DNA from: Hemileia vastatrix
Lineage: Eukaryota > Basidiomycota > Pucciniomycetes > Pucciniales > Zaghouaniaceae
Direction: 5' to 3'
Assembly: GCA_030280995.1 (NCBI GenBank)
Contig: JASXTE010000011.1
Span: 124,001 to 188,000 of the forward strand
Length of the DNA stretch: 64,000 nt
Program-made: the position numbers and the translations under genes
The notes under the pieces: model-generated
Databases searched by the model: none
What the model was told of the DNA's origin: nothing
The model's input: only the letters and a program-made list of their open reading frames with translations
Part shown: positions 17,822 through 54,253 of the stretch, piece after piece
Numbering within the stretch: position 1 is the first letter of the stretch
Layout: the number at the start of each line of letters is the position of its first letter

Positions 17822-17844
17822 CTCATTATCTTTTACAAGGCAAG

Positions 17845-29740: not shown

Positions 29741-30212
29741 TGTCAGCCTAGATATCCCTAGTACTGAGTAATTCTTCTACTTAAAATAAGATAACCTTAA
29801 GTACATTAAGCTTATATCTTAAAAATAAGGTTAAAACAATAATATATATGATTATATTACATATATATATAATTATTACTCTATTATATAAGCTATAGTA
29901 GTTTAAATAGCTTATCCATAGCCTAATAATATTTATTAAGGTGTTAATGGAGTCATAATATACTTATCTTAAGTAATATTAAGTAATTATTGACATACAT
30001 AAGCTTATATGTATACATTAATCTCATATTCAGTGAAATATGCAGTATATTATGTATATTTAGGTATATAAGTGGGTTTTAGCCTCTTAATAGCCTATAA
30101 ACTTTGTCTTTCTGCTTATTTTAGGTCATATGGACATATCCAGTGGACTCACAACGCCTAAAGAAGCATAAACATCTATTTCAAGTGCATACACTCAGTC
30201 TGGACAACTTAA
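29741..30212 (+). repeat. gypsy C 5' LTR, first piece
   Basis: Matches 54385-54856 of the 3' LTR. It ends TGGACAACTTAA, where TAA (30210-30212) is the target duplication of CACTA-2. Confidence 0.93.
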
Positions 30213-30251
30213 CACCAGGTCAAAAGTTAGACGACTTGCAGTCAAGTGGTT
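30213..30251 (+). repeat. CACTA-2 left terminal inverted repeat
   Basis: Pairs with 47168-47206. Next to it inside are AAGTAAC-type short repeats (30265-30310: AAAGTAACATC, GAAGTAACC, GAAGTAACTTC), which could be subterminal binding motifs. Confidence 0.9.
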
Positions 30252-31240
30252 TTTCAGGTATCTTAAAGTAACATCAGAAGTAACCTTTGAAGTAACTTCA
30301 GTGCTTAAATAACTTACAAGCCAGACCAAAACTCTTAGTGTCTCTGTACCAAAAAGAATTTTAGTGAAAGTATATTGCACTGCTTATTGTTAAAACTTTC
30401 TATCTTATTTGATCTTGAGTGACTTCTGGAAATTGTGCCTCAGTGCTCTATTAGCTTTTTTTCCTGGTAAGAAGTCCTCCATTTTAGCTATGCTTACACC
30501 ATTTATTCAAGGCCAATTAAATAACTTTTCATAATTTTCTTTCTGTAGGTTGGCATCATAGACTTTACCAGGACAAAAATCAATGGAGCCACATAGAAAA
30601 GTCCCATACCCTGTTATTGTTAAGCAAAGGTAATTATGATTCAGTCATGAAAATTTATCCTACAGGGACTATTATAATATTCTTAATATTACTGTATTTC
30701 AAAGATGAATAATGGCCAACAATGTCAATTTTTTAGAATGATTTAGTGACTTTTTGACGGTAGAAGAGGTATAATATCAATTTGAAAATAGACTTATACT
30801 TATAAAGTTTTTAAAAACAAATATATACAATAAAAAGAACATACTCAGATTATACTCAAACCTGTAATTTATAAAATTGCATCATAGTTTCAGGGATATA
30901 GTTCACCATGTTCAAAAAAAACTTATATGATTTGTTCAAGTGAGGTTTCACCTATAGCAATAAACAAAAGGAGTTGTAAAAAAATATTACACTGTAGTTA
31001 GAGTTATAAAAAGGTGAAAAAATTAAATATTTTCACTAATCATCAATAGTCAATCAAACCCCTTCTAATACTCATTCTAATTTTAGTTCTGTTTTTAAAT
31101 ATTTTTTAGCTTATAGGAAACTTTATAAACTTAGGGAAAGGAAATTAAGAGTATGTAAAAGGAATTACATGTATCCTCCAAGCTATGATGAAAAATAAGG
31201 TTAATATTTAGAAAGGTTTTTTACCAAATATAGTATAGCT
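30252..31240. other. CACTA-2 left subterminal region
   Basis: About 1 kb of AT-rich DNA with no coding sequence. Short AAGTAAC repeats lie in its first 60 bases. It probably contains the 3' end of the leftmost gene. Confidence 0.4.
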
Positions 31241-33431
31241 TCAATAAGTTTGAACAAGTAATGCATTCATTTTTTTTAACAATTTAAGTTGTTCTGCATT
31301 CAAAGTAGCTTGACTTTTGCAACAGTAAAATTCTATAACAGTTGCTAAATCTTCCGAATTGACTTTTGTCTCAGTATCAACAAGGGACTGCTCTACCACA
31401 GACAAATTATTGTAGTATGTTTCATCTAAAAAGGCTTTTGGAAGATCCCCAGGAAAAGCTTCTTCACCAATATCATCCATAGGGAAACTGCTGGGACCTG
31501 CAAAAGGTTGACCACCTTCTGTTCCTGGGGGTTGAGGGACATTCAATTTTCGATCAAACTTTTATTTGATAGCTGCCTTGGCTGTTTGAGATTTAGAATT
31601 TGCAAGTGATTTGGACATTGACCCCCTGTCAAGTCCATTTAAACATTGAACCAAACCTGCACTTCTCCAATGAATTGGAAGTTTTAATCTACTCCCATCT
31701 TGGCCTTCCTCAGTATCAGAGTGAATACAGATATCTTTGAATAATCCAGACATATCAGGGACCAAAAAAGATGAAGCCATGTTTATTCGTCCATCACGCA
31801 ACTATAAAAATATTATATTTAGTCTCAAAAACATTTGAAAAGCTATAAAATGAACATGCTTACCTCTCTTCTTCTTTTAGAAATTTGAACCTTCATTTTT
31901 TTCAACTTCACCTTTTCAATCTTTTGAGTTTCAGATGATTTATCTTTTGACATATCAGCAAATTTTTTAGACTGCCCAGAGATCCACCTCTCTAGGATGC
32001 TAAAAAATGCTTCATCTGTAACAGACTCATCTGAAACTGAAAAGTTTATCAAACCCTTCCCGTGATAGCAGGCCTTCCATCCAAGAACAATGTGAGTGAT
32101 TATGATAGAGTTCCACTCTCCATCCATACTAGATCCCCAAAGATAGCAAAAACAGCTTATACCAGTTTGGTCCAATTGTGCTTCAGCTTGACATTTCCAC
32201 TTTGTATTAATCATCTGGCCAGGAGGTAAAGCATAGTCAGTAGTTGGGACAAATTTTGGATTTTTGAAGGTTGAAACGAGTTTTTGGGTTTCGGCTTTAA
32301 TGACTAACTGTTGCTGAGCTGGGGCTAATTTTGTACGTGGCTTATCCTGAATTGCTTTAATCACCTTCTCCATCTCAGTTTGGGAAGTGCGCCATTGATT
32401 GACTATCTCATTGGAAGGAGGATCAGGAATTTTATGAGTAGCTGGGTCAATTCCTAGGAGGAGTCTAGCAAAAGAAATAATGGAGCAACCCAATGGAGCA
32501 GAGGCAGAAGGAATAGGTGATTTAAAAGCCAAATTGGCAGTTTTCTTTTTTGTAGCATTTTAAGTTTTTCTCTTCTTGGAGGTGTGTTCATGATGCTTGT
32601 GAAATTTGATATATGACTTAGGATCCAAGCCAGCTGTACCTGAAATGGGCCCCATAGAGATTAGAAATTATATACAAAATAATGAATCTTTCAAACATAC
32701 CACACTCTGAAAAATCATCATCACTAGCAAAAAATTCTGAAATTTCTCTATCATCAGGATGTTGTGCTGTTTCTGAAAAAGATAAAATGTGATTATCTGT
32801 CATTGTTCCATATGAAAAAACCAATCATTTAAAAATACTAACCTGTTACCAAAAAAAAAAGATTTAATAAGTTATAAGTTTATATTATTTGCAATAAAAA
32901 AATCAAACATTAATTTTATTTACCATTTGGATTTTCACCAGTTTCCCCACCACTGGGACCCGGTGGATTGGATGGTACATCGGGAGGATTTGGTGGGGGT
33001 GGAGGTGGTGGAGGTGGAGGTGGTGGAGGTGGTGGAGGTGGTGGACCTTGTGTTGGTGGTGGTGGGCCTTGTGGACCTGGTGGACCTGGTGGACCAGGTG
33101 GTGGTAAAGGTGATTGATGATATGGGGATGGAGGAGGAGGAGGTTGAGGGGTGAATGAGAATTGTGGGAGTTGTATAGGTGGTGGTGGATATGGGGAAGC
33201 AGTATGTGATGGGCCAGGGGAGTCTTGGGTAAAAGGGATAGAATCAGATCTAGTACTAGGTGAACCAATATACGGATCAAAATAGTAGCGTAATTGAGAA
33301 TCATGTTCAGAAGGATTTGGGTGTTGAAAAAGGCTTCTTTGATGACTGTGTTGGTGCCGCAGGCTTTCTCTAATTACAGATTCAGATGATTGAGAGTGTG
33401 GTGACTCAGGGTCTTCCTGAGGTTCAGTCAT
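31241..33431 (-). pseudogene. CACTA-2 companion protein paralogue 1 (Pro-rich N-terminus)
   Basis: ATG at 33431-33429. Exon 1 encodes a His/Gln-rich start and a Pro-rich region ending in a run of about 17 Pro. Small exons follow (around 32824-32700, 32532-31864). The core has SFARLLLGIDP, ILERWISGQSKKF and a basic ISKRRRE. A 62-nt phase-0 intron (31863-31802) precedes LRDGRINMASSF, IHSDTEEGQDG and PIHWRSAGL. This aligns with exon 3 of the CACTA-1 companion (LRDARFKFAV, AHSDDEY, PFRSESA), with an intron at the same place. A TAA at 31562 lies in frame before LNVPQPPGT, so the gene is probably broken. Upstream exon borders are provisional. Confidence 0.65.
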
Positions 33432-34038
33432 AACAACTTTTTTTCTTGTAAATATTTGAAAATTAGAAATATAAAAATAAAATTGACATACCTTCCCTAA
33501 TAGGTTCCATCTTAAATGTATTGGCTTGTTATAAAATTAAATTAAATTTGAACCAAAGACTGTAAATGGTGGATGTTTAAAATAAGATTTAAGGAAGGTG
33601 TAAAAATTCCAACATTTTATTTAGAGCAAAAAAAATTTTCATGCATTATGCATTGTAAGTTTGGCTTCACCAAAATGATCCAAAAAATTTATGAACAGAA
33701 ATGTGAGAAAAGAGAAAGACACAATTACTGTTATCATTTGTGAGCTATCAAATCCAATAATCAACATACAAAAAAATAAGTTTCATATACATTCATACAC
33801 TTCATAATTACATTTCATATTATTAGATTTTGGAAAATTTCATTGCAACACCATCATATGTAAAAATAATCAAAAGAAAATTCATTAAATATCAACAAGT
33901 GAATAAAAAAGTGATAAATGTTAAAAAAATTTAAAAAAAGTGTATTTTATGCAGCCAACTGAATCTCATATTTTTGAACTATGGTTTCAACAACACAATT
34001 AACATAAATGAATTTCAAGAAAAAATCAATAAATCTAA

Positions 34039-36610
34039 TTACAAAGTAAGTTGTGGTTGTCTAGATCTTTTAGCAGATGTTCTTATCCATGGTATTTCCC
34101 CTTCACTTGTATCAATAGTCCATTGCTCTATAAAGTCATGTAAAATAGATTTGGAGACCTGCTCCAGAGAAAGAGAAACAGGAATGTAAAATTGTTTTTG
34201 ACATAGTGAGTTAACTATGGTATCAACAATGAGAGCATGGGTCCTGGGCCATGCAACATCATGCTGATGTGAACTACTTCCAATCAAAAGGTTAGTTACC
34301 TCAATCAACTCCCCACAAGTGGATTGAGTTTTCCTTCTAGCATCATTTGAGCTCAGGAAGAGTCCCCTAACACCAGCAGCAAAAAAGTAAGCAAGGTGGG
34401 AAAAAATTAACTTTGACCTTGAAGTAGCAAGGATAGGTCCTGCTCCTGCCCTAGCTGAGCTCTCTTGCACTGATGAGCCTGATGCTACTCTATCTTGCAG
34501 GAAATCATCACATTTTGAATATCCTTTTAAGAGTGCAAGACATTGAACCATGTAAAGAATCTTGTTGTATAGATTAGCCAGATGCTTGACGGAAATAGTG
34601 AGAGATGATTCATCAGAAGCTGAGCCAATTTTCGCAACATCAACTTTTTGCTTGTACATCATCTTCTCAATGTCCTGGATAATATTAAAAACACTTTCTT
34701 CATTTGCATTTTAATTGGAAACATCTCTTATGGATGAGTCAAGTGTATTTCCTGATAGCTGGATTGATTCCATGATTAAGCTGGCCCAATCACGCTTACT
34801 TGATTCGGATGGAAGTGCAAGAGAAGAAAGTTTGATGAATAAACTAGTAACATTAGCAGACCTCTGCTTCAAAATCTTCATTTCAAAAACATACTTTCTG
34901 TTCCAAAGTTCAAAGATAGATGGTTGGAGGAACGAAGGGGCTATGGAACTTGTAAGCCAGATAAAAAAAAATAAAAGTGAAAAATAAGAAAAAATATTTA
35001 CCAAGTGTAGTGACCTCACTGAGCCACTCTCCAACAGTAGAAGATGATGACTTGAATTTAAGGTTAATGTTTCTTAAATCCATCGGCAACTGAGCTTTAA
35101 GAGCAGAATGTAGATTGTGGATTTCATAGGAGCGGAATGCCAAGTTTCTCCAGGACTTGTCGGGTAATCTTGTTTCATATATTTTACAAATTTCAGTGAT
35201 TTTGTCTCTGAATTCTGGAAAGATAAACTGGTAGGATCTCTCAAAGGGGGGAATGTAGTTGTCACTTTCTTTGCTAGAAGTTGAGGCTGATTCAGGGAGA
35301 GGGGGAGCTGGAGAGGGTCCTAACTGAGTCTGTGAAGCTGAGGTGGGTGTGAGGGCGGGGGCAGGCTGTGAAGGTGGGATAGAAGTAGGACCAGTGGCTA
35401 AAGGTGGAGAAGCAGCTGGGACAGAAGTAGTGACAGAGGGGAGAGGTCTAGTGGTAACAGCTGGGGTATTGGATTTAGAGAGTATAACGGTGGTATCTTT
35501 GGCACTTGGAGACTGGATTGATTTTGGTGGTGGAGGTCTGGAAGCAACATTTATAGGAGCTGAGGTTGATGAAGTTGGGGCTGGTAAAGTGGGATGAGGG
35601 GAAGCAGTTGTAAGGGTGGAAACTACAGGTTGAGAAAGAGCAGGAGCAGCAGAGATAGGGATGAGAGGAGCAGTTGGAGAAGCAGTATTAGGGATGGCTT
35701 TATCAGACACAATTTTGAATGTTGAAGGAGCTGAAGATTGGGTGGCAGGGTTGGTGGTTGTCATGGTGAGTGATTTTTTTGTAAGTTTCTTCTTCTTTGA
35801 AGCAGGGTTGAAGGTTTCATCCTCAGAATCAGTAGGTATATTATAGTTAGGGGCTGCTGCAGCTGATTTTCTCTTTGGACGCCTAGAGGGTTGATCATCA
35901 GTGGTGAGCTCAATGATAACCATTTTTTCCTCTGGAGGAAGCTGAGACCCAGAAGAAACAGCTGAAAGAAAAAATTACTACTAAATACTTATAATGAAAA
36001 CAGTGAAAAAAACTGACCATTTTTCTGCTCTTAGACAAGATCCAAAAGATCCTGCACATTCTTCATAGCTGAATCCGCAAGTAAAGTTCCATTTAAGAGT
36101 GATTCAACACCAGTTTGAAATTTGGTGTACTGCAAGATAAACTCCTCAGTAGAAATTTTATACACCTCATTTTTAAATACACAGCTTGAAGAAGATGGTT
36201 TTCTTTCTTTGGCTTCTTGAGCAAGAGGTATGTCATCTATGAAAAAACAATCAGCTTCTGTAGAAAGAACAATGTTACTAGTTCTGACCTGATGTGTCAG
36301 ATTCACTGTTCACTGCATCACCGGACTCCACAGTGTTGGAGGGTTGTTGAGGGGCAACAGTTAAAGCTTCTACATCAATAAAAACAATGTATAAAATGAA
36401 ATTTTAATAAAAGTTTTAACTAATATATATATAAAATTACTCAACAGATGTCACATTCACCTGAGGATCCACATCTTGAGCTGACAACAGGGAATGGTAT
36501 GAATCATTAGAACTGGATTTTTGTTGAGGCAGCTCCACATCTGGACAGGAGGGTGAGCTGGGAGGTGCCTGACTGGGGGTTGAGGCTGAGGATTGAGCTT
36601 GTTGAGACAT
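34039..36610 (-). CDS. CACTA-2 unidentified Ser/Pro-rich multi-exon gene
   Basis: ATG at 36610-36608 (MSQQAQSSASTPSQAPP). Later coding blocks are 36306-36031 (CFFIDDIPLAQEAKERK), about 35970-34990 and 34662-34039. The third block starts VSSGSQLPPEEKMVIIELTT and holds a basic KRKSAAAAPNYN/KKKKLTKK nuclear-signal-like region. It continues with a long Pro/Ser/Ala/Thr-rich linker and a conserved-looking helical part (PPFERSYQFIFPEFRDKITE). The last block (MMYKQKVDVAKIGSASDESS...) continues that helical region and ends RSRQPQLTL. GT-AG introns of 50-120 nt are visible, but two junctions do not keep phase in my reading. No known domain is recognised. It lies between companion paralogue 1 and the palindrome array and is transcribed leftward, away from that array. 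Confidence 0.5.
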
Positions 36611-36952
36611 CTGTGTTCCGCGTTGATAGTTTTTGAAAAGAGGTGGTTAAGAGTAGAGAAGTTTGTGGATGAGACAGGTAGACTTCTCAGCTTATATTAA
36701 GAAATTCTATGCAAAATATGGTTGCATAGGTTTCAGGCATGACTAAGGAAGGTTGCATTACATTTGTGCAACTAATGTAAAAAAGTAAAGCATAACTCAT
36801 ACTATAATGCGCCAAATACAAATAAATTAAAAATATTGCATCTTTTTGCAATGTTATGAGACTATATACATAACTTTTAGCACCATGTATAGCTTTTTGC
36901 CTCATGTATGCAATATCTCTACATGTATAATTTTATATTTTACTTACAAGTT

Positions 36953-37950
36953 GCATATATGAGGCGACATGTCGCCTTATATATGCGAAATTGATCAAAA
37001 TGTATTAAATTGAATACATGAGGCAACATGTTGCCTCATGTATGCAAAATAGTAAGCAGGGTTATTAATAGCTGCTACAAAAACTTGAACTTTGCATACA
37101 TGAGGCGACATCTCGCCTCATATATGCATGCTTGTAATTGATTAATATTTTATATTTATTACCTTGTATTCCACATGCATACATGAGGCGACATGTTGCC
37201 TCATGTATGCATGTGTGTTAGCCCATTTTAATATACAAAATAACTATGTAATATATACAATTAAACATGTATGAAATATCTCTACGTCGCCTCATGTATG
37301 CAAAATAGTAAGCAGGGTTATTAATAGCCGCTACAAAAACATTTACTTTGCATACATGAGGCGACATGTTGCCTCATGTATTCAATTTAATACATTTTGA
37401 TCAATTTTGCATACATGAGGCGACATGTCGCCTCATGTATGCAACTTGTAAGTTAGATTTTAAATTACAAATTTAGAGATATTGCATACATGAGGCAACA
37501 TGTCGCCTCATGTATGCAACTTGTAATTTAAATTTTCAATTATATATGTAGAGATATTGCATACATGAGGCAACATGTCGCCTCATGTATGCAGTTAAGT
37601 AAAGGCATCGCCAGGCTACTAATAAAGTTCTAAGGCAAGGATAGTGTTTTATTGCATACATGTTTAATTGTATATGTTAAACAGTCATTTTGTATATTTA
37701 CATGGGCTAACACACATGCATACATGAGGCGACATGTCGCCTCATATACGCATGCAGGGCCTCTGCTAGGGCCAAAAAACATAGGTAAAAATGACCAAAT
37801 TAATTCTATTACACATGCATGCAAACATGAGGCGACATGTCTCCTCATGTATGCATGTTTCAACAGACAAATGTATAAGTGCTGTTATGTTTCTTCTATA
37901 TAGGAGAACCCATTATGCATACATGAGGCGACATGTCGCCTCATGTATGC
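36953..37950. repeat. Array of eleven 34-bp palindromes plus one half-copy
   Basis: Each unit is a near-perfect palindrome GCATACATGAGG-CGACATGTCG-CCTCATGTATGC. Starts are at 36953, 37012, 37094, 37177, 37350, 37409, 37484, 37559, 37718, 37821 and 37917; a half unit is at 37285-37301. The copies at 37409 and 37917 are perfect. Spacers are 24-139 bp and some are themselves repeated: AGTAAGCAGGGTTATTAATA occurs twice direct, while ATCAAAATGTATTAAATTGA and the GGGCTAACACACATG flank occur inverted. The array sits in the gap between the leftward and rightward gene blocks of CACTA-2. Confidence 0.95.
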
Positions 37951-39442
37951 AATTTCAAACTTAGTTTACTTCTTAGGTTTAAAGTAGCCCTGCAATATTG
38001 GTGTCCCAAAAAAAGAAAAGACACAACAGCATGTATACATATTATTTCTATGTATTAAATGTATAAAAATTTTTTTTTTTAATTTTGATTCTCATTTTGA
38101 TGATGGTGTATGAAAAAAAAACTATGTTTCTCAAATGCTGATTGAAAAGAGAAATGCATGAGGGAAAATGTGTTACCCTGTATGTATGCTTCTTATTTCA
38201 TCTCCACTAGCCTTTTTCTTGATTAATATTTAGTTTCAATTATTGTGATTACATAATGCATTGTCCTTGCCATCTGCGTGTTTTTACTGTATATATATAT
38301 AGCTATTATTTCTTGAATATGTGATTGGTTATATCAACAGAAGTTTCTTTTTGAAAAAGCTCAAAAGATTTATTAATAAGAAAATTTTTAAGTAAAACAT
38401 GATAGTCCATTTTAATAAAGAAATTTGTCATAATATTTAACTTAAAAGAAGTGAGTGACATTTTGAAATTCTTGATTAGGGCTTAGCACCTGCCTGCAAG
38501 GGGCTGGGTGGTGCACCCCTGGACACTAGTGTACCCCCCCTCCAGTTGTGCAAGTGTTGTGTTAATATTATAAGTTTAATTTTTATTTTTACTCATATGT
38601 ATGTACTGGATGATAAATATATTGAATTAAAATGTAGTTTCAATTTTTGGAATGTTTTGTGAAAAATAAAGGGGAGGAGTATATATTTTATATTTTATAT
38701 AAACAATTCATTATATTAATGAAAATAAATGATTTTGTGAACTTTCCAGCACCTTTTTGACTCTATTAAGTGTAATCTGTGGTTTGTATTTACAAGATCC
38801 CATAAGTTAAATTATAAGCTCTGTACAATATCAGATTTTCAATACTCATTGGCTGTTATCTACAGATAATTTAACCAAGTGAAGTGAACAGTGTAAGAAC
38901 AGAAGTTTTGTAAATGAAGTAATATTTCTAATATTCATGATCCTTCCTTCTCATTGCCATTCTGTGTAATGGAAACATAAAAATTATTGGATGTAGTTCT
39001 GTGTCCACAGAAACTTTTATTCAGTCCAAAAATTGTTTTCTCCACTTGAAAAGGTGGAACATTCAATATATTCTTGTTTTTTAAGGTTTCCAAATATATG
39101 CTTTTATTTGGGAGATAAACTAAATTCATAAATCCTACAAGTGCTGTTTAGATTATTGATGAATAAAAAAATATTTAATTTTAAAAATATCTTATGACTT
39201 ATGTGTACCTCCTGAGATTTAAATCTATGTAAAAAGTTTAACACAGTTAATATCACTTGCTGATCTTTTTTGTCATATTTTATCTGGACCTACAGAGTTT
39301 GGCACAAGTTTAATCAACATGGATAAATTTAGTTTTTATTTAGATCATGTGACTGCTTGGCAATGAAATTTTTGTATCTTGCGTAAATACCCACTTCTTC
39401 CTGAATTATCTTCTTTTCTCTCAAAGTTTATTTCTATTTAAG
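37951..39442. other. CACTA-2 region upstream of the SNF2 gene
   Basis: About 1.5 kb with no supported gene. GC-rich segment near 38488-38550 (CACCTGCCTGCAAGGGGCTG...). A TATATATATAG run lies near 38291. The region probably holds the SNF2 promoter. Confidence 0.4.
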
Positions 39443-41834
39443 ATGGAATCATCTTCTTCTACCTCTCCTGTCTGCATTGGCTTGCTTCAATCTCAAATAT
39501 CTGACTCTTTTAGCTTCCCAGGTTTGGTGGAGCAACCTGTATCACTTTATCTCTCTCATAAAAAACATACTATAAGGGTCAGGGCACAATCACCTCATAT
39601 AAACATTGGTAAACTGTGCCCTACTCATTCTCAAATCCTATATGACCTACTTGGCCAAACAGGTTATCAAACTTTAGTTGCTCCTGTTAGGGGTTGGCTT
39701 CCTGGGCAGGATTCACCCCCTTTATGGGTTGAAGCTACATTGCTACCCCAAACGGGTGCTGACTGTCCCTTAAAAATTAATATTTTGATTTTCTGTATTT
39801 CTACTTTCTTAGTCACCATCCCCCATGCACTTGCATCCATCTCCAACATAATTATTCTTCCACCTGGCTATATCCCATCAATTCACTTGTACTGTCCCAT
39901 ACAAGATTTATTCAATCAAAGCAATCAACTACCATCTATCTCCACCGATTCCTTACTTCCCTCTGCACCTTATCATCCTATACACAAAATCAATGTTCAA
40001 AATTTAAATACAACACTACTACCCCACCAAAAGAATGCGCTTTCTTTTATGCTCTCTCAAGAATCCCGCACCCAAACTTACCTTTGGCGACAGACAGGGG
40101 AGGATAGCTGGGAAAATTATTTGAGCCGAGAACTCCTCCAGAATCCTCCTTCCAAATCAATTCTTCTAGCAGATGAAATGGGTCTAGGAAAGACAGTTAC
40201 CACTATTGCATTAATTTTCAACACCTTAGACAAAGATTCTCAATTTTACCACCTTTTTGAAGCACAGTCAAGCACTCCAAGACTAAAGGCAACCTTTATA
40301 ATTGTTCCTAGAAGCTTGCTTCAGCAATGGAAAGATGAAATCATCCGGCATGTATCAGCTGATATCAATCTCAAAATCACTATCTACCATGGCAGAGGAC
40401 GACACAAAACTTTCAACAGCTGGCCTGATTCACATGTAGTTCTGACTAGCTACAATCTGGTGATAAATGACTTGGAGGATATCAACACAAGCAAGGGGTT
40501 ATATCATGTTCGCTGGTTTTGTGTTATTCTAGATGAAGCTCAGTTAGTTGAAAATTTTCCTACTCTTAGTTTTTCACTTCTAAGTCCAATTTTTTTTTGA
40601 AGCCACATTCGTGAATCAAGAAGCAAGGCCTCAACATCAGTCCTTGGCTTGAAGACCTCTCAACGGCTGTGCATTACTGGAACACCAATTCAAAATAGCT
40701 GTCAAGATTTGTATGCCATCTTCAGGTTCCTTTGACTTTCACCATTCACTACTCCTGCTGGGTGGAATCAGCATGCCCAGCATGCAAAAGAAGGAAATTA
40801 CACAAAGGTCAAAAATGTTATCCAGGATATCTTGGGTGATGTAATGATCAGACGATCCCGACAATCAGTTGGCCTAGACACAATTTATGATCAGCTCACT
40901 CCCTCTATACATGAAAATACAATATTCATCAAGCTTACTGAGGAACTTGCTTGTCTTTACTCTGAAAGGCATTCAAAAACTTTTCAATCTCTTGGAATTG
41001 GCAGTAGTGACAATCTCCATTCAAAAGATCAATCAACTTTAGCAAAATTGACCGGTTTGCGCAGATTTTGTACTCATCCCAAAATGCCATATGACTCAGA
41101 GATCAAATCTGTTGAGCATATGGATTGGAGGGATAGTCCAAAATTGGTTCACCTTATTAAAACACTTCACAACTTAACTTCACAGGATTCAAATGTGAAG
41201 TGCATTATTTTCTCAGAGTGGACTACTACCCTGAAGTTGTAGGTTTTTTGGAAATTAATACTGGATCCCTAAATCCATTTCATTTCTGTTAAAACTGATA
41301 TCTTTTCAAAAAAAATAGGATTTCATTTGCACTTGATGATTATGAAATACGTCACATTCTATTTGATGGCACAACCAATGAAAGTACACGCAAGAATGTT
41401 CTCAAGTCATTTTCACTTATCAAGACTGGTGTACTCCTGATGAATCTCAAGGCAGGTGGAGAAGGATTGAATCTCACTATGGCATCTCATGTGTTTTTAA
41501 TGGTAAGTATTTATAATTTTATTAAGAACCTTTATTTATAAGATTTTTTTCTTTAGGAGCCAACTTGGAACCCAGCTTCTGAGAAGCAGGCAATTGGTCG
41601 TGTTAATCGCATTGGCCAAGAAAAAGAAGTTTATGTATACAAGTATATTGTTGAATCTTCTATTGAGGAAAATATTTCACGTGTCAGCACCATTTCTTTC
41701 ACATTCATTTAAAAATTCTCTCTTATTAATTATTGTTGATCTAGGTAAAAACCATTAAGTTAGATGTTGCTAAGTATGTTTCATTAACTCTACCATCTCA
41801 TCACCATCAAACTAAAATTTATTTTTTTTATTAG
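39443..41834 (+). pseudogene. SNF2/Rad5-type helicase carried by CACTA-2, one in-frame stop
   Basis: Exons fit as 39443-40542, 40603-41238, 41319-41502, 41557-41682 and 41745-41834, with GT-AG introns of 54-80 nt. Motif I is LLADEMGLGKTVTTIALIF (about residue 240), then FIIVPRSLLQQWKDEI. The DEAH box is completed by splicing at 40543/40602. Later motifs are RLCITGTPIQNSCQDLYAIF, VKCIIFSEWTTTL, MNLKAGGEGLNL and EPTWNPASEKQAIGRVNRIG. These are both RecA-like lobes of a Snf2 translocase, closest in style to Rad5/HLTF members but with no RING domain. A TGA at 40733-40735 falls where Arg is expected (FRFL*LSPF). The N-terminal 170 residues are unassigned. Known Snf2 proteins remodel chromatin or DNA-protein complexes; a role in transposition is inference. 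Confidence 0.85.
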
Positions 41835-42141
41835 TCTTTCCCTTCCTAAATGAAACATTAAATTTTAAACTTTCTTTTTTTTATTATTTTCCGTAAGAAA
41901 ATTTTGAAGTCTTCAGTGTACTTGACCACTATCAATTAAGTAGCTTAGCCATGTATTTTTTTTATAAATTTTCTACTGTGTCACAAATACAAAGGAAATT
42001 TTTTTATGTTATATTCCTTTGTTAATTTTACACAAAGGGGCATATTTTTAAAATAATATATATGGAGGTGATTATACCCTTACATTTTAATAATCTAGAA
42101 ACATTTCACATTTATAGATTATAGAAAAAATACCTTCAAAA
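41835..42141. other. Spacer between SNF2 and companion paralogue 2
   Basis: About 300 bp of T-rich DNA; no gene. Probably contains the 3' end of the SNF2 transcript. Confidence 0.4.
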
Positions 42142-43291
42142 ATGCTTTCAACATGTAAGGCTTTCATTCTTTTTTTAAAAGTAATTTGTTCACCTCTTGT
42201 ATTAGCTTCTACTTTGATTCCTACCACAGGCTTCAAGAGCACACGTGATTTTAACAAAATTCTTTCCCAAATTGGTGTTCCAAGTTCTAAGGCTGCTTCC
42301 ACCATTTCAGTTATTGACTTCATGAAACTTGTCTTGGGAAAATGTCAAAAGCTGGACGATTTCCCACCTCCACCAACCACTTCTGAATTATCATCTCTTT
42401 CAAATGAACTAGTTACTACTAATTTATCTCCACCACCTGAAAATACGTACACCCTTGAAGAAATTTCTTTATCACCATCTGGACGCCAAAAAACTATTCC
42501 CCTGGTTTTTTACCATACTTGCCATCAAGATGCCATTAATGTTGGGGTTCCCCGCTTATGCCTCTCATTCAACATGGAGCACAGATATTGGAATCAAAGA
42601 ATCATTCAACACTTAAAAAAGCACTATTTCTATGCCCATAAGTACCAGGAATTTGATCAGTATCACATAGATCATTCTGAAGAAATAATAAAGTTTGTGC
42701 CTCTAATTCTGGAACAATGGCTTCGAGGAAAAATTTCAACCAGTAAATCTTTAGATGTTTCTAAGCTAAATAGAAGAAGAATGATGGATACTAGGCGGAA
42801 GGTGAGCGAGAATTTATTTTTTTGTAAATTTCTATTAATAATTGTCTTCTCAGTTGCATGCTTCTTGTAGGAAAACAGCTGTAGCGTTTCTTGATTCCAA
42901 ACATCTCTTTTTGTTTGATAATCCTTGCTTCCACTCTGACACTGAAGAAGATCAAGAAGGAAATCTTTGGAAAAGGAAACCATCTTGGCGCTCTGAGGAA
43001 TTGTCAAATTTTTACTCACAAGTTGATCAAATTACTCTTAACTTGATAAGAGGATCTAAAAATCATGGACATATTTCTAAAAATATTGTATCTATTAGAA
43101 AAGACTCAAGTATTGCTTCACATACACTTGTGTGTCCTAGTAATTTTCCCACCAATTGTTACAACATTGATAATCTCAGCCTTTCTCAGTTTTTACTTAT
43201 ATGCCATAATCCTTCTTTTACAATCCCTTCTCTCTCCCATCTGCTTAAGTGTTTCACCTGTAAATTTTGTTTAGAATTTTCCTCCTGGTGA
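42142..43291 (+). CDS. CACTA-2 companion protein paralogue 2
   Basis: ATG at 42142 (MLST), with a likely short intron (GTAAGG...TATTAG) before STLIPTTGFKSTRDFNKILS. The core has VIDFMKLVLGKCQKLDDFPP and LILEQWLRGKI, then a basic LNRRRMMDTRRK. A phase-0 intron (42802-42853) is followed by LHASCRKTAVAF, CFHSDTEEDQEG and KPSWRSEEL, and ends at TGG TGA 43291. The order F-x-K/R-L-L/V-LG, ILE-x-W, basic stretch, intron, HSDTEE, WRSE is the same as in paralogue 1 at 33431-31241 and resembles the CACTA-1 companion. It lies between the SNF2 and Tnp2 genes in the same direction. No stop interrupts the frame as read; function unknown. Confidence 0.65.
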
Positions 43292-43431
43292 AGTTGTATT
43301 GAATAGCCATTTTGAATAGTAAAGTTATTTTAGAATTTGAATACATTATTTTCTCTTTTTCATGCCATCTTGTCCAAATACCACCACTTAAAAATTGTTT
43401 TCTTATTATTTTAACATACTCTCTGCTGAAC

Positions 43432-46400
43432 ATGCCTACTAGATATGTTGTTTGCACTTGCTCTGAGCTTGGTTGCAATAAAAAATCTTTCACCAATAGT
43501 GAACGTGAGATAGTTCAGGGGATTTCAATGTCTACAACTGCATATTACAAGCATCAAGATAAAATTCAGCTTTTTAGGAAAGGAAGTCAATTGATCAACC
43601 AATCCACAGCTCCTGAGCACCAACCTCTGGCCGAAAGTAGCTCTCACCAAGAATCTTCTTCTTCTTTTTTTCCTGTGGCAAGCTCTTCAAATGAAGTATT
43701 CTTACCCACTACTAAGGAGGTAAGCACCTAAAGTTTACTTAAATTTATAATTATTTTAATTTCTTGCTTTTTTTAACATATTTATCTCATCAGTTTGGCC
43801 AAAAACACTCATTAAGTCTTGATGCTGATGATGCTGAGTCAATCACCTCAATTGTCAAAAAATTGAAAAGTTTCAAAAATTCTTCTTCTTCCTTTTTAAA
43901 TTTATTACGAATTGAAACCTCCGCCTTTGCTCCTCCTGCTCTTGCACATCTATCACCATTGATTTTCTTTATACTTATTGATCTGGCACATGGCCTTCTG
44001 GTTCAAAACTTATCACATAGGCAAATTAAAATACGGATTCAAGCCAAATTTTTCAAGATCAATTTAATATCTAAAACTTATAAAGATGCCAAAAAACTCC
44101 TGCATGAGTCTAAACAGCTTCCTCATAGCATTTACACTGTTCTCAACCGACTCAACCTACATGCGCCGCTTACAACTATTCTATGTTGTCCAAATTGCTT
44201 TCATCAACCTTGCAAAACAGCTAACAAATACAGCTTTGAACATGCCCATTGTAGTCAAATTTTGCTCAATGCCATAACTTGTAAAAAGAATGTTGTGTTG
44301 AAATGCAATCATCCATTGTTTCAGCAAAAAAATAATCGAAAATTGGATTTAGTTCCAGTCCAAAAGTTTACAACTCAATCTCTTATATCTTGGCTAGCCC
44401 GCCTTCTTCTTCTTCCAGGGTTTGAGGACGATCTGGATTACTCATTAAGGAGGCCACATAGTACACGAGGAAAAATGTGTGATGTTTGGGATGGTTCAGT
44501 CTGGAAGGAATTTAAAGATATAAAAGGAGATTATTTTACAAATAAAAGTGGTAATCTTGTTTTCAGCCTGTATATTGATTGGTTTAATCCTTTTGGGAAT
44601 AAAATTGGTGGTCATAGTCAGGTGTCATTTGGATCTATTATTTTGATTTGTCTAAATCTTCCACCTCATTTACGATATAAAAAGCAACACGTTTTCTTGG
44701 CAGGTATCACACCTGGGCCACATGAACCTGGTTTGGACCAGTGTAATCATGTTATTTCACCTCTTTTAGAAGAACTTCAAAAGCTGTGGAAAGGATGCTT
44801 TTTTCAAAGACATTTCGTTATCCTGAAGGAAGACCAATACATGCTGCAATATTTCCTTTAATTGGTGACCTACCAGCTATCCAGAAGCTCTCTGGTTTTT
44901 CCAGCTATAGCTCAAATAATCCATGCTCATTTCACTTTATTTCTAAAGAAGATTTGAAATCTGGTAAACTTCCTGTTGAGTTCCTATCACGCACTGATTC
45001 CAACCCCCGAACTAAAGCTATTAAATGGAAAAATGCTTCCAGTGCCCAAGCAAGAAAGAAGATCTTTGATAACAAAGGTGTTTGATATTCGTCTCTTCTT
45101 GAACTTCCATATTGGCAATCAGTCTCTTTTGTTGGAATAGAACTTATGCACTGCTTACTTCTTGGTATTGCCAAAGACTTCAGTAAAAATTACCTTCTTA
45201 TTACAGCAGCTGGTGATTACATTCAAAAAGAAAAGAAAAAATCTTCAAAAAAAGGCTTTCAGGATGACCATTCATTCTCTTCAAAATCCAGTCACCATTC
45301 ATTTTCCAGATCCTCCTCTAATCCATCTTTATTTAACATATTAACAAAAAAAAAGATTTCAAAACTACCATCATTCCCCTCAAATTCTACTTCTCATGAT
45401 TCAAGTAAAAGTAGAAAGACAAAAAGTACAGTTTGTGTAGTGATACCGCCATTGAGAAAAAACCTCAAACAAAAACTATCTTATGATGAAATTGGTCAGG
45501 AGAAGGCACGAAATGCTCTAAAAATGGTTGGGCCATCAAGAAGTACTAATCCACAGGGTGTTGAAGCCAGCTCAGAGAAAGAAGAATCAAGCTCTGATGT
45601 AGATATTTCAAGTAAGTTATACTGAATTACTTTTAATTAAACATTTTCCTAATAAATATTTTCTTTAGAGTCCACATTTCAGGAATTTTCTGCCCGTTTT
45701 AGACCTAAAATCAATTTGGTATCAGCTGCAGCACCAAATGATTTAACTTCTGATTTAAATCTAAGGCCTAGCAAATTGATGATTGTTCAAAATTGTATTC
45801 GGCATACACTCATTCCCTCATGGTTAACCCGTGTTCCACACCATGTAGGGGAGACTGGAACAAATCTCAAGGCAGCTGAATGGCTTTTATTAAACAAAAT
45901 TTATTACGTGGTTTCTTTGTTCCCAGTTTGGAATATAGAAAATTCTGAATCTCAAGAGAAGAAGTTGATAAAGTGTCTTTCCCTGTTGGTATCTATTATC
46001 AACCTTTTAACTTCCCTTGAATTAAATGAAGAACAAATTGTATCTCTTCAGGATCATCTAAAAGAGTATATGAAATGTCTTAAAGAATTTTGGCCACATA
46101 TTTACATCAAACCTAATGTCCACTTAGCCCAACATTTTCCTGAAGTTCTGCGATGATTTGGGCCAGCACCATCATCAGCAGCTTGGGCTCATGAGCGTAT
46201 AAATGGAATGTTGGGATCTATCTCACACAATAATAAAAAAGTATGTGCTCCTATAATCTTTTTGTTCCTCATAATTATTTACTTTAATATTTTTTATTTT
46301 AGATGAAATGGACAAAACATTTATGAAAATGTTTATCTTGACTGGGCAGCTTCAATATCTTCTTGAGAGGAATGACAATCGATTTGAAAACAAAATGAAA

Positions 46401-46957
46401 GATGTTTTTGATATAGAAAAAAAAAGACTTCAAAATCAACTGTTAAACTACTCCATGAAGAATATGTTTTATGGCTGGATTATTTAAACAAGATTGATGG
46501 TAAAAAGTGTTTTTCAAATATTTTTGAAAAAGATAAATTGACTTGTGCTTTAGAATTTCTTTCATCTAAAATTACTGATCTCCAATACTTTAACCTTGGT
46601 GATAAATACTTCTCACTATACTCAAAACATCAAGGGAATGGGAATATTGAGATCAAATTATCAAAAGGCAACAAGGTTGGAGTGGTTTTAAGAATGTGGG
46701 AGTCAAAGAAGTTCCCAGATCAAATCTTTATTCTAGTTGGATTGTATGATGCTGTTGAAAAAAAAATAGAAAATCCTTTCTCCAAAGCAGGATTCAAAAC
46801 ATTTTGGTGCTACAATAGATGGTCTAAAAATGTTATTATTACTCATAAGGATATTATTGGACATGCTTCAAGAACTCTCAATCCTAGTGGCTTTGGTGGT
46901 GTTTTATCTGATACTGTCTGTATAATGTCATTAAGTAGTATAGCTGGCGCCTATTAA
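43432..46957 (+). pseudogene. CACTA-2 Tnp2-type transposase, frameshifted
   Basis: Exon 1 is 43432-43719 (MPTRYVVCTCSELGCNKK). After an intron (GTAAGC...CATCAG), exon 2 runs 43794-45611, followed by an intron 45612-45668 and more exons to 46957. Motifs: TTILCCPNCFHQPCK zinc-like site, YIDWFNPFGNKIGG (first catalytic Asp), LAGITPGPHEPGLDQ, FPLIGDLPAIQKLSG (second Asp), LLELPYW...ELMHCLLLGI, PSWLTRVPHHVG, LKAAEWLLLNKIYYVV and AWAHERINGMLGSI (likely catalytic Glu). A one-base deletion near 44785-44790 shifts frame (LWKG|MLFSKT), a TGA at 45083-45085 replaces an expected Arg, and a TGA lies at 46154. The C-terminus includes DIIGHASRTLNPSGF. Same family as the CACTA-1 transposase but clearly diverged. 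Confidence 0.87.
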
Positions 46958-47167
46958 TCACCATTGTAATATCCATTATGAATTCAATATATGCCTTTTA
47001 GACACCAAAGTATGATCTATTGCCTGTTGGAAATTATGCAAACAGCACTATATGAAGAATTCAAATTGGTCCTAATGATTCAGCTATGAGCTATGTGTCA
47101 TGATGAAAAATTGTCCCACCAAAGTTCCAAGACAGGTTTGACTCAGGTTAGACCACAGGTACTAAAC
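46958..47167. other. CACTA-2 right subterminal region
   Basis: About 210 bp between the transposase stop and the terminal repeat. No feature seen apart from the probable polyadenylation region. Confidence 0.4.
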
Positions 47168-47206
47168 AACCACTTGACTGCAAGTTGTCTAACTTTTGAC
47201 CTGGTG
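47168..47206 (-). repeat. CACTA-2 right terminal inverted repeat
   Basis: Minus strand reads CACCAGGTCAAAAGTTAGAC then AACTTGCAGTCAAGTGGTT. Followed by the TAA duplication and the LTR sequence of gypsy C. Confidence 0.9.
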
Positions 47207-47913
47207 TAATCTGCTTCCTTGGATGGATATTCACGGATTTATGGGTTGAGAGGTCATTTCTGGGTTAATATGGATACTTGGGGATGTTATTGGGGGATTG
47301 GACATTTCATTTGGTTCCTTTATATGCTTTGGGATTTATTATATTCTCTTTGGATGAGTTATTTTACCTGTTTCTTTATGGTATCTGCTTTTATCTGGAT
47401 TTTCTATTTATGGTATGGGTCTGTGTTATCATTAATTGTGATGGAAGGTCCTTACTGGAGGTCTGGGTGTTGAATCTGCTTGAAGTGGACGCCATGGGGA
47501 GGTGATGGGCCCTCACAGTGCTGTAATTTCTGGGGATAGCAGTGACATCATCTGGATTGAAGGTCTGTGCACTCCAGTAGATTTTGGTATAAGTAAGGGA
47601 GGATTTTGATGGTTATTAGACATCATTCACTTACTACAATTCAAAAAAACATTATAACAAAATTATTATTATTTAAAGATATATTATAAAGCTATTATAA
47701 ATTGAAATTATCTTTATATAAGCTATAACTATATTATATTCATCTATTTTCCACCACTAGCACGCATTTAAATCCAAGTATTGTGAGTTTTATTTGAGAA
47801 TAACTATTTTGTTAGTCTTCCCCTGAGATTTAATCACTAAATCATTTATTAATAAGTTGTAGGACCATTAATAAATACTATTAAATCATACTTTAATGCT
47901 AGATACACTGACA
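47207..47913 (+). repeat. gypsy C 5' LTR, second piece
   Basis: Begins with the duplicated TAA and continues TCTGCTTCCTTGGATGG as in the 3' LTR at 54860. Ends at ACACTGACA (47913), followed by ATTGGGGGTC, the presumed primer binding site. Confidence 0.93.
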
Positions 47914-51833: not shown

Positions 51834-52640
51834 TGGTTAATGGTATACATTGATGACATCATAGTGTTCTCTAAGAATTATGATGAACACCTAATCTATT
51901 TAAAGAAGGTATTTCAAAAAATGGATGAAATAAAAATGACCCTTGCATTGAAAAAATGTAAATTTGGGTTTGAATCTTTAAAAGTGCTTGGTCATATTGT
52001 ATCTGGCTTACAAATATGTGTAGACCAAAATAAAGTGGCTGCAATAAAGAATATTGGGATTCCTCAAAATGTAAAGGATGTACAATCTTTTCTTGGTATG
52101 TGTGGTTATTATAGACAATATATAAAAATCTACCAATGAATTGCTGCACCATTGACCACACTGATAAAGAAATCAGAAGCTTTCATTTGGAATAATGAAA
52201 GAAAACAGGCTTTTGATAAGTTGAAAGAATGTTCAATGACAGCTCCTATCTTGGGATTACCAGATTTCCAATTGCCTTTTGTATTATATACAGATGCAAG
52301 TTTTATTGATCTGGGTGCTGCTTTGCATCAAAAACAACTTATTGAAGGAAAAATGTCAGAAGTAGTAATTTGCTATATTTCATGTACTCTAAGAAGTAGT
52401 GAATTGAAATATGGTTCTGCTCAACTTGAATGTTTGGCGGTAGTATAGGCTCTTGAGAAGCTACATTATTACCTTGAAGACCAAAAATTTGAGTTAATAA
52501 CTGACTGTAGTTCAGTTAAGTCACTCTTAAACATGAAAACTCCCAATAGACACATGTTTAGATGGCAATTAGCTGTACAAGAATACAGAGGACAGATGAC
52601 TATTACACATAGAGCAGGACCTTACACTCTAATGTAAATC
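51834..52640 (+). pseudogene. gypsy C reverse transcriptase palm and RNase H
   Basis: Starts WLMVYIDDIIVFSKNYDEH, with the YIDD catalytic loop. RNase H motifs are VLYTDASFIDLGAALHQ and FELITDCSSVKSLLN. Stops lie at 52137 (TGA) and 52446 (TAG for Trp), and a small deletion near 52617 shifts the frame before the integrase. Confidence 0.85.
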
Positions 52641-52750
52641 TGTTATCTAGAGTACCTCTGCCTAATAATGATTATAATCCTGCTTATGTTCCTGAAACAG
52701 AGATTATTAACATTTATGGCATTTATATTGTAGATCTTGAGGATGAATTT

Positions 52751-54253
52751 ATGCAATCAATTCTTGATATGTATGCTTCAGATCCTGAGTTGATTAAACT
52801 CACTACAATATTAAATGATCCATCTAATGCTTCAATGAATGTTTTAATAAAAATATTACCAAATAAGTATAAAGAGGCATTAGAAAAAGGAAAATTTTCC
52901 ATTGAGGATGGTTTTATATACTACAGGAAAAAATTAGGTAATGTAATTTTAATTTCCCCTTCAATGAAGGAGTTAAGTATATGTCATGATGATATATTAG
53001 CAGGTCATTTTGACTACCATAAAACATTAACCAGAGTAAAAAACACGGCTTGGTGGATTAACATGTCTGAGGATGTTCAAAAATATGTTGAGACATGTGA
53101 TTCTTGTCAAAAATCTAAAAGATTAACAGGCAAAAGAGCTGGTTTATTACAACAAATTGAGCAACCAAAAGCTCCATGGGAAATAATTAACATGGACTTT
53201 GTAACAGGTTTGCCAATAGCAGGGCATAAGAGTTATAACTCCTGCTGGGTAATTGTAGATAGATTTACAAAGATATGTAAATTTATTCCTACCCACAAAG
53301 AGGTTTCTGAAAAGGACTTAGCTTATTTATGGTGGACAAAAATGCTAAATATAGCAGGTTTCCCCAAAGCAATAGTTTCTGACAGAGATCCTAAATTTAC
53401 TTCTGAGTTCTGGACATCACTTATGGATGTTTCAGGGTGTCAATTAAAACTTTCTACAGCACACCATCCACAAACTGATGGGCTAGCAGAAATAATGATA
53501 CAAACTTTAGAAGATATGATAAGAAGATATTGTGCTTTTGGTCTTAACTTTAAAGACAATGACAAATTCACACATGATTGGGTAACCCTTATCCCAGGTT
53601 TAGAATTTGCATACAATAGTACAGTACATTCTGTCACTGGCAAAAAGCCATTTGAGTTATTGTTGGGTTATGTACCTAATACCCCTGCTAAAACTCTTAA
53701 TAAATTACCTAGATTGGATATCCATCCAGGTACTAAATCTTTTCTTCAGATTCAAGAATTATGCAGAAAACACGCTCAAGAATGTATAAATAAGGCATTT
53801 GAGTATGAAAAGAAAAGATGGGATGAAGCCCATAAAGAACAAATGTTCAAAGAGGGTGATGAAGCCATTATTTCTACATTACATTTCAATTTAAATGGTA
53901 ATGTTAAATTGAAAGATCCATTCATTGGACCATTTGTAGTTAAAAAGATGGTTGGTAACAATGCTGTTGAGGTTATTCTATATGCTCCATATGATAGAAA
54001 ACATCCATTATTTCCTATTTCTCTTATAAAACCATACCATTCTAATGATGCTGCTCTATTTATAAGAAGATCGGGAAGGCATAAACAGCAACCTGAAGAA
54101 ATAGTTGAAAAGGCAGAAATTGAAAAGATACTTAAAAAGAGACACCTTACTAAAGAAAAGGGAGTTGAGTATCTATTAAGATTTAAAAAAAAACAAGTGA
54201 ATATGACCAGTGGATTCCAGAAAATGAAATCTCTGATCTTAAAAATCTCTTGA
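52751..54253 (+). pseudogene. gypsy C integrase with chromodomain-like tail (500 aa open)
   Basis: Longest intact piece of any gypsy pol here. The HHCC zinc domain is HDDILAGHFDYHKTL...ETCDSCQKSKR. The catalytic triad is in INMDFVTGLP (Asp), AIVSDRDPKFTSEFW (Asp) and DGLAEIMIQTLEDM (Glu). A C-terminal GPFVVKKMVGNNAVEVIL module follows, then EKILKKRHLTKEKGVEYLLR, a chromodomain-like fold lacking clear aromatic-cage residues. The start is inside the pol frame, not a true initiation site; the upstream frame is shifted near 52617. Confidence 0.88.

What the first reader, a model, noticed from the sequence alone, without database searches (positions are those of the whole stretch)
30213..47206. 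A 17-kb CACTA-like transposon that carries a SNF2/Rad5-type helicase and companion genes
Boundaries are exact: 20-base identical inverted ends, TAA duplication, and perfect restoration of the host LTR on excision. Inside are a Tnp2 transposase, two related companion proteins, a Ser/Pro-rich unknown and a multi-exon SNF2 helicase with both lobes. Snf2-type cargo in a CACTA element is unusual as far as I know. The helicase lies between the palindrome array and the transposase, facing the same way as the transposase, so it could act in transposition, in opening chromatin at the element, or be captured cargo.
Basis: partly seen in the sequence, partly recalled or inferred. Interest (0 to 1): 0.87.

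Follow-up and report, generated by a model that had tools for sequence, protein, structure and literature searches.

The report
Fungal jumping gene with chromatin-motor gene
A 17-kb cut-and-paste transposon, probably from a rust fungus, carries a gene for an SNF2-type DNA motor protein that two related transposon families, each with scores of copies, have kept in the same place, so it looks like a working part rather than accidental cargo.

Summary
Window 30213-47206 is a complete CACTA/EnSpm-type element: identical 20-nt ends, a 3-bp duplication, and an uninterrupted copy of the interrupted repeat in the window (95.6%). It encodes a tnp2 transposase and a five-exon SNF2 helicase; both frames of this copy carry stops. 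The helicase is not a one-off capture: 73 of 76 listed family-A transposase matches have it within 30 kb upstream on the same strand, 64 at 4.2-4.9 kb. Family B, with other ends, keeps the gene order; 78 of 85 transposase matches there have it. Between A and B, nonsynonymous change lies far below synonymous change in helicase, transposase and companion; within A, change is neutral. Of 21 exact-end pairs on three contigs, the two 17-kb ones hold both genes, the 19 shorter ones neither catalytic core. An array of 11 palindromes is kept in 19 of 19 shorter elements. 'Rad5-type' is partly right: Rad5/16-like ATPase, no RING or HIRAN detected. Best reading: an element-encoded remodeller serving the element's mobility or expression; its action is inferred. 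My searches of a limited library showed no SNF2-encoding CACTA element.

The parts
30213..30232 (+). left terminal inverted repeat, 20 nt exact
   Evidence: 344 + / 340 - exact copies in the genome, 0 in the reversed control
47187..47206 (-). right terminal inverted repeat, 20 nt exact
30210..30212 (.). target-site duplication TAA (left copy)
47207..47209 (.). target-site duplication TAA (right copy)
31613..32559 (-). companion C1 reading frames (31843-32559, and a stretch 31613-31777 matching the second half of C2)
32916..33536 (-). proline-rich reading frame, probably part of a minus-strand gene
34039..35974 (-). Ser/Pro-rich gene (frames 34039-34710 and 34910-35974); the 34039-34710 part has family-B matches at 36-41% identity
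36897..37955 (.). array of CpG-containing palindromes; CpG observed/expected 0.65 (36890-37960) against 0.15 and 0.23 to its left and right in the element
39443..41834 (+). SNF2-family helicase, five-exon model 39443-40542, 40603-41235, 41319-41502, 41557-41682, 41745-41834 (710 codons before the final stop); in-frame stop at codon 411 in this copy
   Evidence: splice borders largely conserved across 30 copies; model and stops; domains; no transcript data
42118..43291 (+). companion C2 (frames 42118-42870 and 42842-43291), 59-60% identical in family B, no Pfam family above cut-off
43303..46957 (+). tnp2 (Transposase_21) transposase, several exons not modelled in detail; an in-frame stop ends the 45656-46156 frame in this copy

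Best explanation
This is one copy of a CACTA/EnSpm-like element whose lineage carries a Rad5/16-like SNF2 ATPase as a core gene beside the tnp2 transposase and the C2 companion; gene order and tree suggest that it was acquired once, before families A and B split (inferred). Shown: exact ends, 3-bp duplications, two families with the same gene order, nonsynonymous change far below synonymous change in the helicase between families, joint loss of the helicase and transposase cores in the 19 shorter elements held, retention of the palindrome array in all 19. Inferred: the helicase acts in trans for the element's own mobility or expression, most likely as a DNA-translocating remodeller that strips nucleosomes or silencing factors (or clears transposition intermediates) at element DNA; targeting through an element protein that binds the palindromes is a further, weaker inference.
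For: Co-occurrence: 73 of 76 listed family-A transposase matches have an A helicase within 30 kb upstream on the same strand, 64 of 76 at 4.2-4.9 kb; family B 78 of 85 within 30 kb, against about 0.002 per match expected by chance for B. On contigs C2, C19 and C26, 21 adjacent exact-end pairs under 25 kb: both 17-kb pairs hold helicase and transposase matches, the 19 shorter pairs hold none, and their DNA lacks the ATPase and tnp2 parts. One complete B copy of about 19.0 kb, C26:42570793-42589780, holds B helicase, C2 and transposase. A against B: helicase ATPase part pN 0.31, pS 0.78 (saturated); transposase pN 0.20, pS 0.61, dN/dS about 0.19; C2 about 0.17. Walker A-type, GTPIQN and QAI..V.RIGQ motifs are present in both; DEAH was read in A only, because the B junction there was set by me. 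A and B helicases form one clade, support 100/100, on a long stem. The array is found in 19 of 19 shorter elements with up to 6 mismatches (2 to 18 sites), and its exact 28-mer at 728 places genome-wide, reversed control 0. C-to-T and G-to-A at CpG are about 15 times as frequent as at other C or G in 30 A copies, so the copies look targeted by cytosine methylation or a RIP-like process, while the array of this copy keeps CpG.
Against: Within family A there is no sign of selection: N/S is neutral for single-copy changes (relative 1.00) and for shared changes (1.02), and only 3 of 30 copies have an open spliced frame; shared changes are inflated by recurrent CpG loss. No expression, binding or mobility data. 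Apart from P0001, a short-contig protein 96-97% identical to B copies of this genome, protein searches found no close relative of the helicase elsewhere, so its presence in other species is not shown. Some transposase matches lack a listed helicase and some helicase matches lack a listed transposase. Synonymous divergence is higher in the helicase than in the transposase (pS 0.76 against 0.61 and 0.56), which may mean exchange between families rather than simple co-descent. The B copy compared is itself broken. Palindrome binding is untested, and the companions match no Pfam family above cut-off.
Confidence: 0.7

Rival explanations
1. Captured host cargo: the helicase was picked up and hitch-hikes without serving the element.
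For: Captured genes are common in transposons (general knowledge); changes within family A look neutral.
Against: Same position in two families whose helicases differ at about half of their residues or more, with pN far below pS; among the 21 end pairs examined none has the transposase without the helicase.
Confidence: 0.1
2. The helicase acts directly in transposition or repair (unwinding, gap repair, replication-fork handling), as its Rad5/16-like ATPase might suggest, not in chromatin opening.
For: Best match among solved structures is a chain named DNA repair protein RAD5, E 1.7e-52; named relatives include RAD5, RAD5A and TTF2 proteins; it is kept with the transposase.
Against: No RING and no HIRAN detected, the parts that tie Rad5/HLTF to fork repair (recalled; a fungal RAD5 used as a control shows both). 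Nothing here separates repair from remodelling.
Confidence: 0.3
3. The helicase works against the host's silencing of the element, in the way VANC proteins act in Arabidopsis VANDAL elements, with the palindromes as family-specific target sites.
For: Strong, TCG-biased CpG decay of A copies; the array of the window copy keeps CpG and is retained in gene-poor derivatives; the one B copy held has different palindromes in the same interval upstream of its helicase. VANC targets are likewise non-coding repeats that diverge between related families (PMC10398659, passages seen).
Against: No binding, methylation or expression data; the derivatives may keep the array simply as a transposition site or by descent from few progenitors; only one B copy was read.
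Confidence: 0.3
4. The palindrome array is only a cis site for transposase binding, an internal counterpart of CACTA subterminal repeats, and has nothing to do with the helicase.
For: Kept in 19 of 19 shorter elements, in the 2-kb ones as most of what lies between the ends; derivatives need only cis sites.
Against: In the window copy it lies 6.7 kb from the nearer end, between the divergent genes, which fits promoter or chromatin control at least as well.
Confidence: 0.35

Closest known systems
CACTA/EnSpm elements of rust fungi, including the TET/JBP-carrying EnSpm families of Puccinia and Austropuccinia (Kojima 2025, PMC12730594; outline, passages and section 4.2 seen)
   Same: 5'-CAC..GTG-3' ends, 3-bp duplications, related transposase type, an extra chromatin-related enzyme carried by the element; the transposase relatives with a named species are Puccinia striiformis proteins at 36-44%
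   Different: The extra enzyme here is an SNF2 ATPase; no TET/JBP match in the 13 of 15 listed frames scanned; the word SNF2 does not occur in that paper's main text
Plant CACTA elements such as En/Spm with TnpA and subterminal repeats (recalled; one search gave a listing only)
   Same: tnp2 transposase plus a second protein, repeated cis motifs
   Different: SNF2 gene; the repeats are palindromes inside the element, not subterminal
Rad5/HLTF, Rad16 and TTF2/Lodestar group of SNF2 ATPases
   Same: ATPase core
   Different: No RING or HIRAN detected, own N-terminal region of about 190 aa without a Pfam match
VANDAL elements with VANC anti-silencing proteins (PMC10398659, passages seen)
   Same: element-encoded extra protein, non-coding repeats that differ between related families
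   Different: VANDAL are MULE-type and VANC is not an SNF2 ATPase (recalled); action not shown here
AcademH and KolobokH DNA transposons that encode a helicase (Kojima 2020, not held; known from passages and citations)
   Same: DNA transposon that encodes a helicase
   Different: Different transposase superfamily (recalled); here a separate gene beside a tnp2 transposase with 3-bp duplications

Membership tests
CACTA/EnSpm DNA transposon | terminal inverted repeats beginning CAC | tested here: met
   CACCAGG... both ends; family B CACAGGG...
CACTA/EnSpm DNA transposon | 3-bp target-site duplication | tested here: met
   3 of 3 complete 17-kb copies tested (TAA, AAA, ATT) and 18 of 19 shorter elements; L056 does not match
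CACTA/EnSpm DNA transposon | tnp2 (Transposase_21) transposase | tested here: met
   55 bits against cut-off 28.6
CACTA/EnSpm DNA transposon | catalytic DDE residues and C(2)C/H(3-4)H motifs located one by one | not tested
   family match only
CACTA/EnSpm DNA transposon | TnpA-like DNA-binding second protein with subterminal repeats | tested here: inconclusive
   companions match no Pfam family above cut-off; repeats are internal palindromes
SNF2 ATPase superfamily | both RecA-like lobes with the helicase motifs | tested here: met
   SNF2-rel_dom 195.8 bits and Helicase_C 61.6 bits in the spliced protein of copy L018; motifs
Rad5/HLTF proper | RING finger between the lobes | tested here: not met
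   no match up to E 10; the fungal RAD5 control P0119 matches RING models
Rad5/HLTF proper | N-terminal HIRAN domain | tested here: not met
   no Pfam match, hhalign to a RAD5 profile 0.1% probability; control P0119 scores 59.9 bits. The query profile is shallow (3 rows), and the insignificant best alignments fall on the HIRAN part, so a degenerate HIRAN cannot be excluded
Rad5/HLTF proper | branches with Rad5 in a tree | tested here: not met
   placed, support 83/94, next to ten fungal SNF2 proteins that are not named RAD5 in the listing; several long branches
TET/JBP-carrying EnSpm of rusts | TET/JBP dioxygenase gene in the element | tested here: not met
   no match in the 13 of 15 listed frames scanned; the whole-genome search found nothing, but its controls rang nowhere either, so it shows nothing
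VANC-like anti-silencing system | element protein removes DNA methylation at repeat targets | not testable with these tools
   needs methylation and binding data

The most novel reading that the evidence does not exclude
The element carries its own targeted chromatin-opening system: a companion protein recognises family-specific CpG palindromes in the divergent promoter interval and recruits the element's SNF2 motor to clear silencing there, letting autonomous and non-autonomous copies escape host methylation. Palindromes and ends would diverge together between families, a DNA-transposon analogue of VANC anti-silencing built on an ATP-driven remodeller.
Probability: 0.25. Interest if true: 0.86.

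Novelty: new variant of a known kind. Interest (0 to 1): 0.66.

Why it matters
CACTA elements are usually described with a transposase and one small DNA-binding protein (recalled). A lineage that has kept an SNF2 motor through deep divergence, in two large families, suggests that transposition or expression of these elements needs element-encoded remodelling. It adds to TET/JBP as a second kind of chromatin enzyme carried by transposons in what is probably a rust fungus, and makes a prediction that ordinary methylation and chromatin data could test: the state of the palindrome array. It also warns that SNF2 gene counts in transposon-rich fungal genomes may partly count transposon genes.

Tried and rejected
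One-off capture: rejected by copy number and position. Separate helicase block with its own ends: among the repeats listed (20 of 57 direct families, 25 of 150 inverted pairs) none closely brackets the helicase, and the block sits between the same neighbours in family B. Helicase-minus autonomous copies: the 8-kb and 2-kb elements looked like candidates, but they lack the ATPase and tnp2 parts, and 12 of 14 records of the larger class (13 elements) show no ATG frame of 140 aa or more. Truncated helicase as a regulator in the 8-kb elements: rejected; the kept 5' part has 2 to 10 stops in 12 of 13 elements, and in the other (L042) it changes frame. HIRAN in the N-terminal region: not supported; the predicted structure of the 415-residue frame had pLDDT under 50 over most of residues 1-204, so no fold search was run. 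dN/dS inside family A: neutral. TET/JBP in the genome: one search found none, but its controls rang nowhere, so it shows nothing. DNA methylase: 8 of 8 matches lie on contigs C74, C228, C350 and C561, below position 130,000; whether these belong to the host is unknown. Literature: (no paper). I saw listings with titles and starts of abstracts, plus passages of PMC10799480, PMC12210899, PMC10398659 and PMC12730594; none of what I saw describes a CACTA element with an SNF2 gene. Most subscription papers and Repbase are outside this library, so absence from print is not shown.
Full report
Observation. The two 20-nt ends are exact and inverted, with no other match in the window up to 3 mismatches, sit in a 46-nt inverted repeat at 93% and are flanked by TAA. 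An uninterrupted copy of the interrupted repeat lies at 54457-55256 and matches the joined flanks over 800 nt without gaps at 95.6%. The element is 16,994 nt long.

Gene content. Pfam finds tnp2 (Transposase_21, 55 bits) and SNF2-rel_dom (98 bits, and 23 bits just under the cut-off for the second frame) in the expected frames. Across 30 helicase loci of the same genome, the window included, intron borders are largely conserved, and a five-exon model of 710 codons results. In the window copy this model has an in-frame stop at codon 411; 3 of the 30 copies have no stop and no frameshift. The spliced protein of an open copy matches SNF2-rel_dom (195.8 bits) and Helicase_C (61.6 bits), with no RING and no HIRAN match; a fungal RAD5 run as a control shows both. 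The best sequence match among solved structures is a chain named DNA repair protein RAD5 (6l8n, E 1.7e-52). In a tree of 42 proteins the element helicases A and B form one clade (100/100) on a long stem, next to ten fungal SNF2 proteins (83/94), apart from the RAD5 branch and from the TTF2 branch. Several rows have long branches, so the sister group is uncertain.

Relatives elsewhere. The first helicase search listed 81 proteins; apart from P0001 (45% identity to the window, 96-97% to many family-B copies of this genome) the rest are 40% identical or less over part of the query. The search with an alignment listed the best 120 of 4,370 and again only P0001 stands out. So no copy of this helicase was seen in another named species. 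The transposase search gave 7 proteins; the three with a named species are from Puccinia striiformis.

Copies in the genome. The window lies in a 747.6-Mb assembly without a name. The exact 20-mer occurs 344 times forward and 340 times reverse, none in the reversed control. The helicase query gave 102 listed matches: 87 at 67-100% identity (family A, some being pieces of one copy) and 15 at 43-45% (family B). The transposase query gave 113 rows; without three short fragments these are 76 of family A and 34 of family B. The lists are capped and are lower bounds. Of the 76 A transposase rows, 73 have an A helicase within 30 kb upstream on the same strand and 64 at 4.2-4.9 kb; counted against all listed helicases within 25 kb the figure is 74. 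Of 87 A helicase rows, 69 have a transposase within 12 kb downstream and 18 do not. With B queries, 78 of 85 B transposase rows have a B helicase within 30 kb upstream; of 107 B helicase rows, 78 have a transposase within 30 kb downstream and 44 at 4.7-5.1 kb. Chance for B is about 0.002 per row.

Ends and structure classes. On contigs C2, C19 and C26, whose exact ends all precede the cut of the list, there are 21 adjacent end pairs under 25 kb: two of 17.05 and 17.17 kb with helicase and transposase matches, and 19 of 1.9-11.7 kb with none. The two 17-kb pairs have AAA and ATT duplications; 18 of the 19 shorter elements have matching 3-bp flanks, and L056 does not. Among the 15 family-A helicase rows on those contigs, six lie 9.17-9.31 kb from the nearest left end (window: 9.14 kb), two are closer (8.36 and 8.81 kb), and the other seven are further away or have no listed left end within 40 kb.

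Shorter elements. The DNA of all 19 was read. Thirteen (7.2-8.1 kb, and one of 11.7 kb) share 0.4 to 1.9 kb at the left end, 0.7 to 1 kb around the helicase start, and about 1.85 kb at the right end with the window copy at roughly 72-91%; six (1.9-2.9 kb, and L051 of 9.1 kb) share about 480 nt at the left and 122 nt at the right. None shows the helicase ATPase part or the tnp2 part in that comparison. Of 14 records of the larger class only L050 and L052 show any ATG frame of 140 aa or more. So they look non-autonomous.

Family B. L059, the core of one B copy, has helicase (43-65% identity by piece), C2 (59-60%) and transposase (50-66%) in the same order and strand. The Ser/Pro-rich gene has B-like matches: 56 listed, 50 with a divergent B helicase within 40 kb, 37 at 3.5-5.5 kb. 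I picked the B end by eye from L064 (printed); its 22-mer occurs 78 times forward and 75 reverse with up to 2 mismatches, control 0. A complete B copy of about 19.0 kb spans C26:42570793-42589780, one end with one mismatch, and holds B helicase, C2 and transposase matches.

Selection. Inside family A, changes seen in one copy have N/S 3.07 against 3.06 expected from the non-coding spectrum, and shared changes 3.12: neutral. This fits a recent burst followed by decay; median pairwise divergence of the 30 loci is 3.4%. Between A and B (one copy each) the helicase ATPase part has pN 0.31 and pS 0.78, the N-terminal part 0.46 and 0.72, the transposase 0.20 and 0.61, C2 0.27 and 0.69. The synonymous values of the helicase are saturated, so a ratio cannot be given, but nonsynonymous change is well below synonymous change in each gene compared. 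The B copy is itself broken. The decline of pS from helicase to transposase is unexplained.

Palindrome array. Eleven sites match a perfect 24-nt palindrome with up to 5 mismatches at 36958-37945; none appear in 20 shuffles. The exact 28-mer occurs at 728 places in the genome, control 0. All 19 shorter elements carry 2 to 18 sites with up to 6 mismatches (L053 is the right part of the element split over L052 and L053 and has none itself; L045 has only 2). L059 has no such site, but upstream of the B helicase it has two 46-nt palindromic repeats and other inverted arms of different sequence. In the window copy the array has a CpG observed/expected of 0.65 against 0.15 and 0.23 in the rest of the element.

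Silencing marks. In the 30 A loci, C-to-T and G-to-A at CpG occur at 0.155 and 0.165 per site and copy against 0.009-0.016 elsewhere, and TCG is hit harder (0.27) than ACG, CCG or GCG (0.09-0.11). PMC12730594 section 4.2 reports TCG hypermutation of repeats in Pucciniomycotina. With the Puccinia striiformis transposase relatives this makes a rust host probable; it was not tested with a marker gene. DNA methylase matches were found only on four contigs of unknown belonging.

Mechanism. The best-supported statement is that the helicase is a core gene of this CACTA lineage and acts for the element. Whether it remodels chromatin for expression, counters silencing at the array, or handles transposition intermediates is open. 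The array's retention in the shorter elements suggests a cis site for mobility or activation; its place between divergent genes in full copies and the different palindromes of the one B copy read resemble the fast-changing target repeats of VANC proteins (PMC10398659, passages). No experiment links helicase and array.

Relation to the known. As an element it meets the CACTA/EnSpm features tested except that a TnpA-like partner is undecided and catalytic residues were not located. As an enzyme it is a Rad5/16-like SNF2 ATPase but not Rad5 proper by the features tested. The nearest printed relatives found are TET/JBP-carrying EnSpm elements of rust fungi (PMC12730594). The searches showed no CACTA element with an SNF2 gene in the listings and passages seen; the library is limited.

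Noticed in passing
window 10908-12146 (-): A second tnp2-type transposase fragment (Transposase_21 33 bits, weak Plavaka match), 33% identical to the element's transposase over 236 aa; the element's helicase finds no other match in the window.
   Followed up: partly
window 16811-17908 (-) and 52613-54253 (+): Reverse transcriptase and integrase frames of LTR-type elements; the repeat interrupted by the transposon has another copy at 54457-55256.
   Followed up: partly
window 56310 and 8363: A perfect and a near-perfect 28-nt palindrome outside the element, unlike the array in sequence.
   Followed up: no
L059:949-1256: The family-B copy has two 46-nt palindromic repeats with CACGTG or CACATG near their ends, and other inverted arms, upstream of its helicase.
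   Followed up: partly
L039-L050, L052: The larger non-autonomous elements all keep 0.7 to 1 kb around the helicase start although it no longer codes; identity to the window differs by subgroup.
   Followed up: partly
G000 contigs C74, C228, C350, C561: All 8 DNA methylase family matches of the assembly lie on these four contigs, none on the large ones, despite strong CpG decay of the element.
   Followed up: no
window 39443-46156 against L059: Synonymous divergence between A and B falls from helicase (0.76) through C2 (0.69) to transposase (0.61, 0.56), perhaps a sign of exchange between families.
   Followed up: no
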